Source of the DNA: Pseudomonadales bacterium
Lineage (GTDB): Bacteria > Pseudomonadota > Gammaproteobacteria > Pseudomonadales > Azotimanducaceae
DNA length: 64,000 bases
Assembly (NCBI GenBank): GCA_028281005.1
Contig: JANQKS010000020.1
Span: 1 to 64,000 of the forward strand
Reading direction: 5' to 3'
Every line of letters starts with the position of its first letter. Position 1 is the stretch's first letter. Made by a program: the position numbers and the translations under genes. Below the pieces are notes generated by a model that was given only the letters and a program-made list of their open reading frames with translations, made no database searches and was not told where the DNA came from. Below, one piece after another: positions 33,829-39,108 of this stretch.

Positions 33829-34249
33829 ATGGCAGATTTAATCCAAGAACTGCTCGATAAACAGCGATCATGGAGCTGAGCTACCGTTACTCACGGGGCT
33901 GTTTCGCACCAACAATGTGCCTGTGTCGATGGGTGGTGTAGACGTCCCCGCGGATTCAAAAATCTGTGTGATGTGGGGTTCCGCCAATCGGGACTCAGAC
34001 CTGTTTGAGCGGCCCAACCAGTTTGACATCACGCGTGATCTCGATGAGCGTAAGCGCAAGAGCTTGAGTTTCGGGGGCGGTATTCACCGTTGTATGGGTG
34101 CTCCGCTGTCACGCATGGAGATTCGCGTGGTGGTTGAAGAGAGGTTAAGACGCATCCCTGAGTTTGAAGAATACCAACCGCGGGTGCCGTATCCCTATGC
34201 CACGCTGATCGGTGATGATCACCTCTACTTGGCCTGGCTCTGTGAGTGA
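33829..34249 (+). pseudogene. Cytochrome P450, C-terminal fragment
   Basis: From about 33875 to 34249 one frame encodes the last quarter of a P450: LFRTNNVPVSMGGVDVPADS (the beta-turn before the K' region), FERPNQFDIT, and the heme loop FGGGIHRCMGAPLSRME. The I-helix, ExxR motif and everything upstream are missing. An ATG at 33829 opens a 16-codon frame (MADLIQELLDKQ) in a different frame, perhaps the remnant of the other side of a deletion. It is not of the CYP153 type. Non-functional. Confidence 0.8.
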
Positions 34250-34712
34250 GCGGATAAACCTACCGCCATCGGGTGGCGAGGAATTGATGCGCACCTATTT
34301 ACTAGAGGTGGCAGCAGCGGGGCGATTGGAATTGATCGAATCGTTGGCACATCCGGATATGGTGGATGAAGCAAACTTGGCATTTGGTGGCCCGCTGGGG
34401 CGTGAAGGTTTAATCGCCCACGTCAAAGGGTTTCGGAAACACATCGTCGATTTTGAACTGAACATCCATGAAATTGTGGCGCAGCCGTCCGAGGTCATGG
34501 CGTGGTGGTCGTTTCAGGGCCGTCACGTAGGGCCCTGGTTGGGTGTGCCCGCCACTAACGAGCAGATTTGCGGCGAAGTGTTCAGCTTTTTTACGTTGTG
34601 TGACAATCGCATCCAGCGTTACCGGTTGTGGTTGTACACCACCCTCAACGCTGGCATGACGTTTGATTCATCCCACGCGTTACGTGAGTTAACACGTCAA
34701 CAGAAAGAATAG
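34242..34712 (+). CDS. SnoaL-like polyketide-cyclase/NTF2-fold protein
   Basis: 156 aa. A cone-shaped alpha+beta protein of the SnoaL/ester-cyclase group: LAHPDMVDEANLAFGGPLGREGLIAHVKGFR, then VAQPSEVMAWWSFQGRHVGPWLGVPATN. Such proteins may catalyse ring closure, isomerisation or hydrolysis, or bind ligands. GTG at 34242 is the likely start, overlapping the P450 fragment by eight bases; the frame opens earlier. Its stop codon lies within the first unit of a 9-bp tandem repeat. Confidence 0.72.
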   Translation: MSERINLPPSGGEELMRTYLLEVAAAGRLELIESLAHPDMVDEANLAFGGPLGREGLIAHVKGFRKHIVDFELNIHEIVAQPSEVMAWWSFQGRHVGPWLGVPATNEQICGEVFSFFTLCDNRIQRYRLWLYTTLNAGMTFDSSHALRELTRQQKE

Positions 34713-34746
34713 AAAGAATAGAAAGAACAGAAAGAACAGAAAGAAC
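34702..34746. repeat. Five-unit 9-bp tandem repeat (AGAAAGAAY)
   Basis: Two units AGAAAGAAT followed by three AGAAAGAAC. It contains the stop codon of the SnoaL-like gene and ends 12 bases before the next start codon, so it forms most of the purine-rich leader of the SDR gene. Confidence 0.9.
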
Positions 34747-34757
34747 AGAGTTAAGAA

Positions 34758-35531
34758 ATGCTTGAAGGACAGGTAGCGGTCATCACTGGCGGTACTCGGG
34801 GAATTGGCCGTGCCATCGCAGAAGTTTTGCTCGGCAAAGGCGCCAGCGTAGTGGTCAACGGCCGCAACGCGGAAAAAGGAGCGCGTGCCATCGAGGAAAT
34901 GGAGGCGGGTGAGCGTGCGTTGTTTGTCGCCGGTGATGTCACCCGTCAGGAGGATGTCGAGAACGTCTTGGATGCGGCCATCCAACAATTTGGCAAAGTT
35001 GACATCTTGGTGAATAACGCTGGGGGTTCTTCCGGTTTTGCACCGGTTGCCCAGATGACTGAGGAAGCCTGGCAGGAGGCTGCTGCGTGGATTCTGCATT
35101 CCGCCTTTTGGGCTACCCGCCGCGCGCTACAAGACATGGAGAAGCGCAAGTACGGCCGCATTATCAATATCTCATCTGTGGAGGGGCGGCAGGCGAGTAA
35201 AACTGCGGTGTCACACTACATTACTTTCAAGCACGCCTTAAATGGGTTCACCAAGGCCGTAGCCTTTGAATATGGCCCCCACGGAATTACTTGTAATGCC
35301 ATCAGTCCCGGTGGTGTGGAAACTGATCTGATGACCGAAGCAGGCCCGGCAGCAGCGGAGTCCATGGGTATTACCTACGAAGAATTTAAGGACAACTACG
35401 CCCAGGAAACCTCTATCAAACGGCTGAACACGGTGGAAGAGGTGGCCGCTGTGGCGTTGCTGCTGGTGTCTCCCGAAGGTGGTGGCATTACCGGAGCTAA
35501 CTTGCCGGTCGACGGTGGCACCGCGCTTTAG
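34758..35531 (+). CDS. Short-chain dehydrogenase/reductase, FabG-like
   Basis: 257-aa SDR. Cofactor motif TGGTRGIGRAI, NNAGG motif, catalytic Ser in INISSVEG and Tyr/Lys in YITFKHAL. C-terminal GANLPVDGGTAL is typical. It would interconvert an alcohol and a ketone. Its last bases overlap the stop of the converging Fe-S gene fragment. Confidence 0.9.
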   Translation: MLEGQVAVITGGTRGIGRAIAEVLLGKGASVVVNGRNAEKGARAIEEMEAGERALFVAGDVTRQEDVENVLDAAIQQFGKVDILVNNAGGSSGFAPVAQMTEEAWQEAAAWILHSAFWATRRALQDMEKRKYGRIINISSVEGRQASKTAVSHYITFKHALNGFTKAVAFEYGPHGITCNAISPGGVETDLMTEAGPAAAESMGITYEEFKDNYAQETSIKRLNTVEEVAAVALLLVSPEGGGITGANLPVDGGTAL

Positions 35532-36040
35532 GTCGCCTCATCTTCCTCCGGTTTTAGAAACACTTGAGTGTACTTTTCCGCCATCCCAGTTGCTTGTCCT
35601 GGTGTGCTCCATGGGCAAACGGCGGGACACACAGCGCAACCGTAGGTTTCATTGACGTCCCAGATACATTTATCAAAGTCGACGTACCACTTTTCAACGC
35701 CACGGACCATTTGTTTGTCGGTGGCGATGGCTTGCGGCGGACAGGCTTTGGTGCAGATCTGGCATCGTGTACAGAAATCGTCCGCGCTGAGTTGATCTGG
35801 GGAATCGACTGTCAGGGGTAGATCTGTCTCAACCGCAGCGAGACGGAAGGAAGAGCCGTATTCGCGATTGATCATCGAACCGTGTTTACCCGGTTCACCT
35901 AAACCAGCGGTCATTGCCGCGGGAATCAGATTGAGGTTACCCACCCAGGGCCCGGCGTGGGGTTTGAGCACTAGGTCACGGATAATTTGCGCAGTGTGAT
36001 TTATGGCACGTGCGCCGCGGTTGAACGCCGCGGCACTTCT
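35528..36040 (-). pseudogene. Reductive-dehalogenase-like 4Fe-4S protein, N-terminally truncated
   Basis: C-terminal part of a protein with two 4Fe-4S sites: CTRCQICTKACPP and CAVCPAVCPW. The preceding NREYGSSFRLAAVETDLPL segment is typical of the reductive dehalogenase/epoxyqueuosine-reductase-like group. A GTG at 35971 opens the annotated frame, but native-looking sequence (RSAAAFNRGARAINHTAQII) runs in frame further upstream to a TAA at 36041, with no start codon. So the N-terminal cobamide-binding region has been lost at a junction with the FAD-monooxygenase fragment. Short repeat copy 3 lies within the coding part and does not break it. Confidence 0.72.
35961..35974. repeat. Short dispersed repeat, copy 3 (GGTTTGAGCACTAG)
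   Basis: Shares 14 bases with copies at 83-99 and 15512-15528. Here it is read through in frame (minus strand, LVLKP). A partial match, AGCACTAGGTCA, is found again at 59499-59510. Confidence 0.45.
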
Positions 36041-36059
36041 TTACACTCTTTCATCTGCC

Positions 36060-36690
36060 GGAGGGGTGAGGCGCGGCCCGCGTTCGGCGTTGGCGTACAC
36101 CGCGTCTAACATGGGTACGGAGTGGTGGCTCATTCACCGTACCGGCTCAGCCGGCAAAGACATAGATAACATCGACTTAGAGCAGTCCATCCGCGATGTG
36201 TTCGGGGTTGACGACAACTTCACCTGGGAAATAGTGCACCACCAGGACTGGATCGCGCGCCGCATGGTGGCGGAGCGTTTCCGAGTGCAAAACGTGTTTG
36301 TTTGTGGGGATGCGGCGCACCTACGGATACCGTTTGCGGGCTACGGCATGAATGCGGGTATTGCCGATTCCACCAACCTGACCCGGATGATGGCCGCGGT
36401 GCTGAACGGCCAAGCGCCCGGGTCACTGCTCGATGCGCACGAACCAGAACGCCACCCTATTACAGAACAGGTCAGTCACCTAGCGATGGATAAGGCGCTG
36501 GAGTACATGCAACGTGCGCAACGGCGCAGCATTCCCAAGGTGATCGAAAGCCCTGGGTTTGTAGGAAAAATTTTACGCAGCAGATTAGGAAAACAGCTGT
36601 ACAACCTCAATCTGCCTCAGTTCGCCTGCAAGGGTCTTAACTTTGGTTATTACTATGAAAACTCACCCATCATTCAATATGACGGCGAAT
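36060..36690 (+). pseudogene. FAD-dependent monooxygenase (PHBH fold), C-terminal fragment
   Basis: About 200 codons covering the substrate-domain end and the second FAD motif: FTWEIVHHQDWIARRMVAERF, VFVCGDAAHLRIPFAGYGMNAGIAD, HEPERHPITEQVS, then NFGYYYENSPIIQYDG. The N-terminal GxGxxG half is missing, and the native sequence stops near YDGE; further open frame to 37133 only mirrors the opposite-strand TauD fragment. The gene is therefore cut on both sides, next to an Fe-S fragment on its left and TauD on its right. Confidence 0.78.
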
Positions 36691-37210
36691 CTCCGCCCAG
36701 GAATGTAAGCCCACTCGCGGTGGCCAAGGAAGAGCACTTCATCGCCGGTTTCCGGGTGGATTTGGATGATGTTGTGAATCGCCCCCGGGGCTTCGCGCGG
36801 ATCTTCAAAGTGATGGTAGCCTGGGCGCAGCTTGCCTATGCTGGTGTGCGCTGCATCGTGTTTGATGGTAAGAGGCTTGATGCGTTGTTTAAGCTTTGCA
36901 GGCACCGCATGAAAGGCGGCGCGTTGATCGGCGAAGTAGGTGTCACCGCCCGCCGCAGGACTCTCCACGCCCAACAAGACGCTTGCCGGTGGTGGTTGCG
37001 CCAGGTAAGTCATGTCTGCGTGCCAATTGGCTTCAGCGTTGCCCAAACCACCAATCGGTTTGCCATCTACGACAATGTTGGACAGTTGGGTGACGTAGCG
37101 GTTTTTAACTTTGGCTTTTTCAGCTTCGGGTAAGCGGCCGAACGGGATTTCTTCCAGCGGACCGAAGGGGGCGCTGAATTGCTGCAATTGGTCTTCAGTC
37201 AGCGCCTGGT
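36690..37210 (-). pseudogene. TauD/TfdA-type 2-oxoglutarate dioxygenase, fragment lacking both ends
   Basis: Internal part of a TauD-family enzyme: RNQALTEDQLQQFSAPFGPLE, then WHADMTYLAQPPPAS with the HxD iron ligands, and HREWAYIPG. The first 50 or so residues and the C-terminal portion with the distal iron-binding His and the 2-oxoglutarate Arg are missing. The 5' side is joined to the end of the selenoprotein gene, whose stop codon lies inside the TauD-derived sequence; the 3' side is joined to the FAD monooxygenase fragment. Confidence 0.8.
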
Positions 37211-38421
37211 TCCTTAGCCCGGGATTTGCCGGTCGCTTCGCCGGCCATTTCGCGCGGCAGAATGATCCGCGCAAAAACCTGTAGCTGTGGTTCTTTGAGC
37301 GCGCAAAACTGGTGGTAGAAACTTTTTAACGCTGCACCCAACGCGGTGTCCTGCCATAGAGTTTGTTGTAAGGCCTCGACGGTGTAGTTACCCGGTTGCG
37401 CCGTCAGCGCTTCAAGGTAATACACCTTTAGATCTTCAATCGCGTGTTTAAACCACGCCAGTTCTGTCAACGGCAGTTGCTGGTCGTCCAAAAGCTGGCC
37501 CAGCTTAGCCATGTTCGCTTGCGCGCTTTGATCGGAGACGCCAACTGCGGTGCGGCCTTGGCGGCTGCGTTTGGCCAAGTCATACCATGGCTCAAGCGAT
37601 CCCAATTCCTTTAGCAATTTGCCGCGCCAGCTGGTGTTGTCCGTCGGGCTGGTAAATGAGACCGGACAGCTTGGGGCATCGGTTGGTTGGGCTGCTGGTA
37701 GCTCTTCAGGAAAGTCTTCCAGCACCGGTCCAGCGCTGCGGTTAAGCAAGGCTAATGCCGCGGCGATGACGCGGTGTTGCACTGCGCTGTCGCCGGGATT
37801 CCCTAAAGGTCTACCGAGAGGGAAGCTGACCCATAACGAACGTGGCGGGCGCATACTGGCGGTGTTTTCACGCACCAAGCTGATGCCCGTGGTCATAATT
37901 CCTTGTTTTTCGATGAAATAACTAAGCGCGGCCACGGCGCGCGTGCAGTTTGGTCACACCGGGGTTAAAAAAACGGCCTCAACCCGGTCCTTTTTAAGTA
38001 AACCGGCCACTTGGGTAGCGCTTGCGGCATAAGCCTCCGGTTCGAGACCGGCACCCATGAAGCTGTAGTGCACATCGGCCAGCGATGCCACTGTCCCGGC
38101 CGCCACTAACTCCTTGAAGCGGTCGATGGGAAAGACCACGTTTGTGTCTTGCACAAAGCCGGATTTATCGTAGTTAACCGAACTGTGCGACATGACTAGA
38201 TTGTCAGTACTTGCTGCGTTGGAAATTGGCCTGAAGGTGGCGTCCGCAAAACCAAAGTTGGTCGCGTCGCGATAATGTAGTCCGGCGGTGGTGATGGGCG
38301 CTATGCCCATGTCGGGTAAAGGTTTACGCTGCGCCACTCACACCGGTGTTCCCAACGGGGGTGAGTTTTTGCTCAACAGGTGTTTGCGCTCAAAGGCCGG
38401 TAGATCCGATAGACGTACCAT
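37195..38421 (-). CDS. GrdB/PrdB-like selenoprotein (glycine/sarcosine/betaine/D-proline reductase B family)
   Basis: 408 codons. The ATG at 38421 has a perfect GGAGGAG upstream and starts MVRLSDLPAFERKHLL, the normal N-terminus of this family. The family-typical ITTAGLH, VMSHSSVNYD, DVHYSFMG and RPPRSLWVSFPLGRPLG motifs follow in one frame. Codon 156 (37954-37956) is TGA at TPV-U-PNC, the redox UxxC position where relatives have Sec or Cys; a five-pair hairpin with a GU-containing loop lies 12 bases downstream. So I read it as selenocysteine. A second in-frame TGA at codon 28 (38338-38340) sits where Trp (TPW) is common and may be a nonsense change or sequence error. The C-terminus is fused to TauD-derived sequence. 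In anaerobes GrdB reduces glycine or betaine; the role in this aerobic-looking organism is unknown. Confidence 0.8.
37926..37942 (-). promoter_or_regulatory. Candidate bacterial SECIS hairpin, GrdB-like gene
   Basis: On the minus strand GCGCG, loop CCGUGGC, CGCGC, beginning 12 bases after the TGA. Bacterial SECIS elements sit inside the coding region just behind the UGA with a GU in the apical loop; this fits in place and shape. Confidence 0.55.
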
Positions 38422-38484: not shown

Positions 38485-38520
38485 TATTTCGGTGGCGACT
38501 GAAAATCATTGAATTCTGAG

Positions 38521-39108
38521 GTGAGCACAGACGGCAGGGTTGAACGCACGGCGGCCACCCGCCGTAAGATTTTGCAGGCAACACGCGCGTTGCTGCTCGA
38601 TGGTGTGGGTGAGCCTACCGCGCGGGAAATTGCCGCTGCGGCACAGATCACCACCCGCACCCTGTTTCGCCATTTTGGCGACATGGAAGCGCTTTACGTG
38701 GATTTGGGCCGCGACACCGAGCGCCAGGTGATGGCGATATTGGATGAACCGTTCGCCGATGATGTTGATGCGGAGGCGGATTGGCGAGCCTTTTTGGAGG
38801 TGGTCATTGAGCGCCGGGTGCGGCTTTACGAATCGCTCTTGCCAGTTTACGTCTCTTCTCTGTGGGGCCGCTATATGGCTGCCAGCTCTAAACAAGCACG
38901 CCAAGCCGATCTGCGGCGCGGTAGGCGCAGGCTGAGGGAGATCTTGCCTGCCGAACTGCTCGCCGACGAAGCGCACTTTGAGGCTTTGGTGGCGGTGCTG
39001 AGCATTGCCTATTGGAGCTCGCTGCGCCGAGATCAAGGTTTAAATGTTGCCCAGGCGACGCGGGCGTTGCGCTGTGCCGTCACGCAAATGACACAGGAGC
39101 TGAGATGA
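38521..39108 (+). CDS. TetR family transcriptional regulator
   Basis: 195 aa. Helix-turn-helix EPTAREIAAAAQITTRTLFRHFGDMEALY. GTG at 38521 or TTG at 38509 is the start. Divergent from the selenoprotein gene, with a 19-bp palindrome in the gap. The GST-like gene begins 18 bp downstream, so the regulator probably heads an operon with the GST, membrane protein, second GST and crotonase genes. Confidence 0.88.
   Translation: MSTDGRVERTAATRRKILQATRALLLDGVGEPTAREIAAAAQITTRTLFRHFGDMEALYVDLGRDTERQVMAILDEPFADDVDAEADWRAFLEVVIERRVRLYESLLPVYVSSLWGRYMAASSKQARQADLRRGRRRLREILPAELLADEAHFEALVAVLSIAYWSSLRRDQGLNVAQATRALRCAVTQMTQELR

What the first reader, a model, noticed from the sequence alone, without database searches (positions are those of the whole stretch)
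37195..38421. GrdB/PrdB-like selenoprotein hidden by an in-frame TGA, in an aerobic-looking catabolic island
Seen: two open frames are in the same frame and separated only by TGA at 37954-37956, within TPV-TGA-PNC, i.e. a UxxC redox motif. A five-pair hairpin with a GU-bearing loop follows at the right distance. Known: GrdB and PrdB carry Sec in anaerobic glycine/betaine/proline reductases. Inference: this protein performs a thiol/selenol reduction in an organism whose neighbours are oxygenases, so its substrate is probably not glycine. The divergent TetR and GST genes point to handling of an electrophilic xenobiotic.
Basis: partly seen in the sequence, partly recalled or inferred. Interest (0 to 1): 0.85.

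Follow-up and report, generated by a model that had tools for sequence, protein, structure and literature searches.

The report
Eroded relic of a marine selenoprotein
A stop-like codon in this marine bacterium's gene really is an ancestral selenocysteine codon of a proline-reductase-like protein family, but this particular copy carries a second, damaging stop codon and its partner gene is truncated, so it looks like a recently decaying copy of an operon that is intact in related bacteria.

Summary
The TGA at 37954-37956 (minus strand, codon 156, TPV-U-PNC) is an ancestral selenocysteine codon: TGA in 41 of 41 aligned rows, with Cys at +3; a SECIS hairpin with double changes in 4 of 5 pairs; selB, selD and tRNA-Sec, and selA by eye, in the genome. 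Of 38 other scorable rows 28 have Trp there, 9 Phe/Tyr, 1 Asp, and no hairpin follows: a premature stop, not a second Sec. In orthologues a TfdA/TauD dioxygenase gene follows directly (26 of 30 assessable); here only residues 43-216 of it remain, beside fragments of two more genes. This copy is probably a recently eroded operon; an assembly fault is not excluded. The family is PrdB-like but probably not D-proline reductase: 110 bits against a cut-off of 300, an extra helical domain, and no GrdE-type (PF09338) partner subunit. Marine 'PrdB' selenoproteins are in print since 2005; I did not find the dioxygenase operon in print.

The parts
37198..38421 (-). PrdB-like selenoprotein gene, 408 codons if both internal TGAs are read through; probably inactivated copy
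   Evidence: best orthologue 62% identical over residues 1-402
37954..37956 (-). TGA codon 156, ancestral selenocysteine codon, U of the U-P-N-C motif
   Evidence: TGA in 41 of 41 aligned rows, this copy and three paralogues included; Cys at +3 in 41 of 41
37926..37942 (-). SECIS-like hairpin: five pairs, seven-base loop with GU; the loop-closing pair kept in 42 of 43 aligned sequences is C-C here
38338..38340 (-). second in-frame TGA, codon 28; Trp (28), Phe (8), Tyr (1) or Asp (1) in the 38 other scorable rows of 40
   Evidence: 0 of 5 hairpin pairs
36696..37217 (-). fragment of the TfdA/TauD-family dioxygenase that directly follows this gene in most orthologues; residues 43-216 of 284 only
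   Evidence: 75% identity, no stop inside; PF02668; only close copy in the genome
36114..36698 (+). internal fragment of an FAD monooxygenase, residues 245-439 of a 549-aa homologue
   Evidence: L112; PF01494
35552..36034 (-). C-terminal half of an Fe-S protein related to reductive dehalogenase/QueG, residues 167-329 of a 331-aa homologue
   Evidence: L113; full homologue TIGR02486 114.7 bits, below its cut-off 160.35
38509..39108 (+). divergent TetR-type regulator; homologue near 10 of 31 orthologues
   Evidence: PF00440
39127..40158 (+). GST-like protein with a long C-terminal part; homologue of at least 49% identity near 3 of 31 orthologues
   Evidence: PF13417, PF00043

Best explanation
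This is the remnant of a selenoprotein/dioxygenase operon of the marine K189A clade (Gammaproteobacteria). Shown: codon 156 is a Sec codon by descent, the Sec machinery is present, and most orthologues carry the gene followed at once by a TfdA/TauD dioxygenase. Shown: in this assembly codon 28 is a second TGA and the dioxygenase is cut at both ends. Inferred: ribosomes stop at codon 28 and the operon no longer works here. Inferred for intact relatives: the Sec selenolate attacks a carbon bearing a leaving group on a small molecule, without a GrdE/PrdA-type partner subunit; Cys159 then resolves the selenium adduct or selenosulfide, and thioredoxin or glutathione re-reduces the enzyme. The dioxygenase would open the same or the preceding substrate oxidatively, and the TetR-type protein, where present, would regulate the set.
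For: Sec: TGA in 41 of 41 rows and Cys at +3 in 41 of 41. Hairpin: 94.9% of cells paired, 4 of 5 pairs with double changes, better than every slid version; a hairpin also follows all three paralogue TGAs. selB, tRNA-Sec, selD, selA by eye. Erosion: codon 28 is TGA only here among 39 scorable rows. Dioxygenase reduced to residues 43-216, so the C-terminal metal and 2-oxoglutarate ligands (recalled for the TauD family) are missing. No other close copy of either gene in the listed matches of the genome. The adjoining FAD monooxygenase and Fe-S genes are also fragments with abrupt ends. Five changes at 101 otherwise invariant columns, second highest of 32 rows. Loop-closing pair lost only here, 1 of 43. 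Function: dioxygenase next door in 26 of 30; no PF09338 subunit here, and one in only 1 of 200 family genomes; precedent in FarB, a GrdB-like Sec protein proposed to attack the C-F bond of fluoroacetate (passages of PMC10838667).
Against: Apart from codon 28 the 408-codon frame is open, and the dioxygenase fragment has no stop, so decay would be recent. The count of changed invariant positions is weak: L033 has 6, and on near-invariant columns the window (13 of 167) is below L033 and L082 (19 each) and beside L071 (12). One SECIS measure, further pair types, is reached by 48 of 500 shuffles, and the codons there also encode conserved residues. Codon 29 is GTG, so a start just after the TGA could give a protein lacking 28 residues. 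An error could make codon 28, though less readily three truncated neighbours; no reads were available. Four of 30 orthologues lack the dioxygenase, and none of 12 more distant homologues has it directly downstream, 3 of them with under 1 kb held there. Betaine reductase and FarB work with unprocessed, pyruvoyl-free GrdE-like partners (passage), so lack of pyruvoyl is not new; lack of the partner is the point. No result here shows the reaction.
Confidence: 0.75

Rival explanations
1. The gene still works: translation begins at GTG codon 29 right after the TGA (or restarts there), Sec is inserted at codon 156, and the protein acts without its first 28 residues and without the dioxygenase.
For: GTG directly follows the TGA and opens a frame up to codon 156; the rest of the frame is open; the TetR and GST neighbours match their Pfam domains and align over most of their length with homologues.
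Against: The N-terminal segment and an aromatic residue at 28 are kept in nearly all relatives; no clear ribosome binding site upstream by eye; partner gene truncated; SECIS loop-closing pair lost.
Confidence: 0.15
2. Codon 28 is a sequencing or assembly error and the fragments beside it are mis-assembly; the real genome has the ordinary intact selenoprotein operon.
For: 135-contig assembly with 2.01% contamination; codon 28 differs from a Trp codon by one base; no match in 39 other genomes of the genus runs across a joint.
Against: Three neighbouring genes are truncated; no intact close copy of the dioxygenase is found elsewhere in the genome.
Confidence: 0.12
3. The intact family is D-proline (or glycine/betaine) reductase, as earlier marine surveys labelled it.
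For: Residues 25-227 align to PrdB 17-219 of 238 at E 1.6e-31; same UxxC motif.
Against: 109.6 bits against a cut-off of 300; PF09338 absent here and present in 1 of 200 family genomes although 174 of 200 match the selenoprotein query; no PrdA match in 4 carriers searched, a weaker test because that model passed its cut-off nowhere; extra C-terminal helical domain.
Confidence: 0.05
4. Codon 28 is a second selenocysteine.
For: The organism has the machinery to decode UGA as Sec; the codon is in frame.
Against: Relatives have Trp, Phe, Tyr or Asp there, none of 38 scorable rows Cys or TGA; 0 of 5 hairpin pairs.
Confidence: 0.02

Closest known systems
PrdB, Sec subunit of D-proline reductase (TIGR04483)
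   Same: Residues 25-227 align over nearly the whole PrdB model; UxxC motif; Sec by UGA
   Different: Far below the family cut-off, about 170 extra C-terminal residues, no PF09338 or PrdA match in the genome, oxygenase-type neighbours
GrdB/GrdF/GrdH, Sec subunit of glycine, sarcosine and betaine reductases (PF07355)
   Same: Pfam GRDB match above the gathering score; UxxC
   Different: Only the last fifth of the Pfam model is matched (275-345 of 347); below the NCBIfam cut-offs; GrdE-type PF09338 absent
Marine 'PrdB' selenoproteins of the Sargasso Sea and GOS surveys (PMC1088965, PMC2398784)
   Same: Same label, UxxC motif, marine; 42 genes in the first, 235 Sec and 110 Cys forms in the second (passages seen). 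Probably the same family, but their sequences were not compared here
   Different: The passages seen do not mention a dioxygenase neighbour or a missing partner subunit; the first gives the proline reductase role
FarB of the fluoroacetate reductase operon in Cloacibacillus (PMC10838667, passages)
   Same: GrdB-like Sec protein proposed to attack a C-F carbon, i.e. a non-amine substrate
   Different: Anaerobe; has a GrdE-like partner, transporter and radical SAM protein. No alignment was made here

Membership tests
Bacterial UGA-decoded selenoprotein | in-frame UGA conserved as Sec in homologues | tested here: met
   TGA at codon 156 in 41 of 41 rows
Bacterial UGA-decoded selenoprotein | SECIS hairpin just downstream | tested here: met
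   double changes in 4 of 5 pairs over 43 sequences; this copy keeps five pairs with a larger loop
Bacterial UGA-decoded selenoprotein | selA, selB, selD and tRNA-Sec in the genome | tested here: met
   selB, tRNA-Sec, selD above cut-offs; selA only by eye, ORF next to selB
Bacterial UGA-decoded selenoprotein | intact reading frame apart from Sec codons | tested here: not met
   codon 28 TGA in this copy; met in the orthologues read apart from frameshifted L035 and mis-framed rows
Bacterial UGA-decoded selenoprotein | selenium found in the protein | not testable with these tools
   needs mass spectrometry or labelling
D-proline reductase PrdB (TIGR04483) | score above curated cut-off | tested here: not met
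   109.6 against 300 bits
D-proline reductase PrdB (TIGR04483) | partner subunit PrdA | tested here: not met
   PF09338 none while it rings in G015; TIGR04480 none, but that model passed its cut-off in no genome, 14 controls included
D-proline reductase PrdB (TIGR04483) | reduces D-proline | not testable with these tools
   needs biochemistry
Glycine/betaine reductase GrdB (TIGR01917, TIGR01918) | score above curated cut-off | tested here: not met
   34.9 against 602.2 and 38.5 against 65.45 bits; Pfam PF07355 gathering score met, 30.7 against 22
Glycine/betaine reductase GrdB (TIGR01917, TIGR01918) | GrdA and GrdC/D partners | not tested
   GrdA/C/D were not searched
TfdA/TauD dioxygenase (partner) | complete domain | tested here: not met
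   PF02668 positions 42-198 of 267 here; 2-266 of 267 in relative L027

The most novel reading that the evidence does not exclude
Intact relatives encode a new class of aerobic selenoenzyme: a PrdB-type selenol reductase that works without any GrdE/PrdA-type partner and cleaves a carbon-heteroatom bond (halide, ether or thioether) hand in hand with a TfdA-type dioxygenase. Much of what ocean surveys call proline reductase would belong here, and the window shows the operon caught while being lost.
Probability: 0.35. Interest if true: 0.65.

Novelty: new variant of a known kind. Interest (0 to 1): 0.42.

Why it matters
Proline reductase selenoproteins make up 6.4% of selenoprotein genes in a large marine survey (passage of PMC9402790), and an earlier survey gives them the amino-acid role (passage of PMC1088965). 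Here 174 of 200 genomes of one family match the query, paralogues counted, while 1 of 200 has the GrdE-type subunit family. If this holds generally, an abundant class of ocean selenoenzymes is misnamed and its reaction unknown; the dioxygenase operon gives a direct way to test it. The window also warns that a real Sec codon does not make a working gene.

Tried and rejected
Second Sec at codon 28: rejected. Rfam scan of the window: no match. Fold comparison with the PDB: a confident model of relative L027 (mean pLDDT 89.1) found no match with E at or below 0.001; a sequence profile against the PDB gave a best E of 0.29. So no structural hint of the substrate. SelB against presence of the gene gave no contrast, because 158 of 200 genomes have SelB over the cut-off. 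A genome of the genus that shares the scar: no match across a joint among 39 others. Paper searches, most hits seen only as listings: GrdB/PrdB with Sargasso, PrdB with dioxygenase/marine/aerobic, selenoprotein with TauD/HTCC2089, selenocysteine with proline reductase/marine bacteria, selenoprotein with pseudogene/nonsense, 'PrdB-like', 'GrdB-like', 'GrdB family', 'PrdB homolog' (2 papers), PrdB with pyruvoyl/Proteobacteria. Nothing that I saw describes the dioxygenase operon.

Full report
Observation. The gene lies on the minus strand, ATG at 38421. Reading TGA as Sec gives 408 residues with U28 and U156 and a final TGA at 37195-37197. The claim that only this TGA splits the frame is wrong: 38338-38340 is also an in-frame TGA. 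A five-pair hairpin with a GU-bearing seven-base loop follows U156 (37926-37942), but 88 of 2086 TGAs in the window pass the same loose test, and 2 of 9 long same-frame stretches split by a TGA do, so by itself it proves little.

Codon 156 is Sec. In alignment A2 (41 rows: the window copy, 37 homologues taken from the 56 loci then held, and three paralogues from the same genome) the codon is TGA in 41 of 41 and the residue three further is Cys in 41 of 41. In one search, 50 of the 52 loci printed span the place and show TGA (window copy and some duplicates included); L048 and L052 do not reach it. Homologues are on contigs titled gamma- and betaproteobacterial, Desulfobacterales, Chloroflexota and Rossellomorea, mostly MAGs. 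Over 43 distinct 44-base stretches, five pairs at columns 16-20/26-30 are 94.9% paired, 4 of 5 pairs show changes on both sides, and every slide of 1-3 columns does worse; four measures beat all 500 shuffles, the fifth (further pair types) is reached by 48 of 500. RNAalifold finds the same helix. The codons there also encode conserved residues, so part of the conservation is protein constraint. The genome has selB and tRNA-Sec, selD, and an ORF just upstream of selB that reads as selA (by eye; no family search). The four genes of the genome found with the GRDB family carry TGA at this place, each with a hairpin after it.

Codon 28 is not Sec. In A2 the 40 other rows have Trp 28, Phe 8, Tyr 1, Asp 1, gap 2; only the window has TGA. 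None of the 55 loci other than L053 (the window copy) translated shows TGA at this place; L034, L044 and L049 were read on the wrong strand there (the first two were checked, L049 was not), and a few begin after it. The stretch after codon 28 forms 0 of the 5 hairpin pairs. The simplest reading is a premature stop.

The partner gene. I examined 31 orthologue loci (54% identity or more), one per genome, chosen among the best matches. A TfdA/TauD-family dioxygenase follows on the same strand at -16 to +93 bases in 26 of the 30 with enough sequence; 4 lack it (L033, and L089, L093, L096 from one genus), and L091 ends too soon to tell. None of 12 more distant homologues has it directly downstream (3 of them held under 1 kb there). 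A TetR homologue lies within the flank held in 10 of 31, a GST of at least 49% identity in 3 of 31 (all). The intact partner's best solved relatives are 2,4-D and phenoxypropionate dioxygenases and TauD. In the window the partner keeps only residues 43-216 of 284, 75% identical, without stops, and no other match above 36% exists in the genome.

Erosion around it. Compared with homologues from the same genus, the window holds residues 245-439 of a 549-residue FAD monooxygenase (36114-36698) and residues 167-329 of a 331-residue Fe-S protein (36034-35552). The full Fe-S homologue is nearest reductive dehalogenase TIGR02486 but below its cut-off. A P450 match further on covers only 350-431 of 462. 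The monooxygenase and dioxygenase homologies overlap by three bases at 36696-36698, which points to a deletion joint. A same-genus genome (G203, L115) has the intact pair. No reads were available, so an assembly fault cannot be excluded. The window protein also differs at 5 of 101 columns otherwise invariant among 32 rows (L032 and L080 in that set are one gene), second to L033 with 6; on near-invariant columns it has 13 of 167, below L033 and L082 with 19 each. It is the only one of 43 with the SECIS loop-closing pair broken. These signs are weak alone.

What the intact protein does. Residues 25-227 match PrdB (109.6 bits, cut-off 300) and weakly the GrdB types. The model of relative L027 is confident (mean pLDDT 89.1): an alpha/beta domain with residue 156 just before a helix that follows a strand, then an all-helical C-terminal domain; no solved structure matches with E at or below 0.001. 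Known reductases of this kind work with a GrdE/PrdA-type partner, which in glycine and proline reductases bears a pyruvoyl group (recalled; a passage of PMC10838667, adds that the betaine and fluoroacetate partners are not processed). PF09338 is absent here and was found in 1 of 200 family genomes, a strong hit that serves as positive control, whereas 174 of 200 match the selenoprotein query, paralogues included. The PrdA model gave nothing in G000, G103, G167 and G044 and a weak hit in G015, but it passed its cut-off in no genome, controls included. So I infer a selenol attack that needs no such partner. FarB, a GrdB-like Sec protein proposed to break the C-F bond of fluoroacetate, is the nearest precedent (passages only). 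The substrate is unknown.

What is in print. Marine PrdB selenoproteins: 42 genes (PMC1088965, passages), 235 Sec and 110 Cys forms (PMC2398784, passages), 6.4% of selenoprotein genes (PMC9402790, passages). Reviews list D-proline reductase TIGR04483 with UxxC (PMC9312934 and PMC13188914, passages). The dioxygenase operon was not described in what I saw.

Organism. Two loci titled K189A clade (L029, L031) carry the same gene as same-genus genomes G050 and G198; the taxonomy places K189A in the OMG group of Gammaproteobacteria, with HTCC2089 below it. The window's clade is therefore inferred, not named.

Noticed in passing
35552-37217: Three neighbouring genes (Fe-S protein related to reductive dehalogenase, FAD monooxygenase, TauD-type dioxygenase) survive only as fragments with abrupt joints, as if several deletions had hit one catabolic island.
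   Followed up: yes
33917-34249: Cytochrome P450 match covering only the C-terminal part (350-431 of 462), about 90 bases after an amidohydrolase gene that matches its family almost end to end.
   Followed up: no
34699-34749: Nine-base tandem repeat (AACAGAAAG, 5.7 copies) ending about ten bases before the start of an SDR-like gene at 34758; could vary in length.
   Followed up: no
G000 contigs C15, C53, C94 (L020, L021, L022): Three further PrdB-like genes in the same genome, with TGA in UPVC, UPLC and UPVC and a hairpin after each, in other surroundings (for example an M81-like peptidase and an enoyl-CoA hydratase by eye at C15).
   Followed up: partly
G015:C195:56878-58110 (L103): The only one of 200 family genomes with a PF09338 subunit; might be a true amino-acid reductase carrier.
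   Followed up: partly
L039 4269-4853 and L050 2630-3292: Two Burkholderiales-like homologues (L039's title names a Bordetella MAG, a label I did not check) have another TetR-like gene upstream, about 70 bases away in L039 and about 1.7 kb away in L050; L039's is AcuR-like but below cut-off.
   Followed up: partly
window 9286 (minus strand): A second long frame split by a TGA passes the loose hairpin test, without a UxxC motif; not examined further.
   Followed up: no
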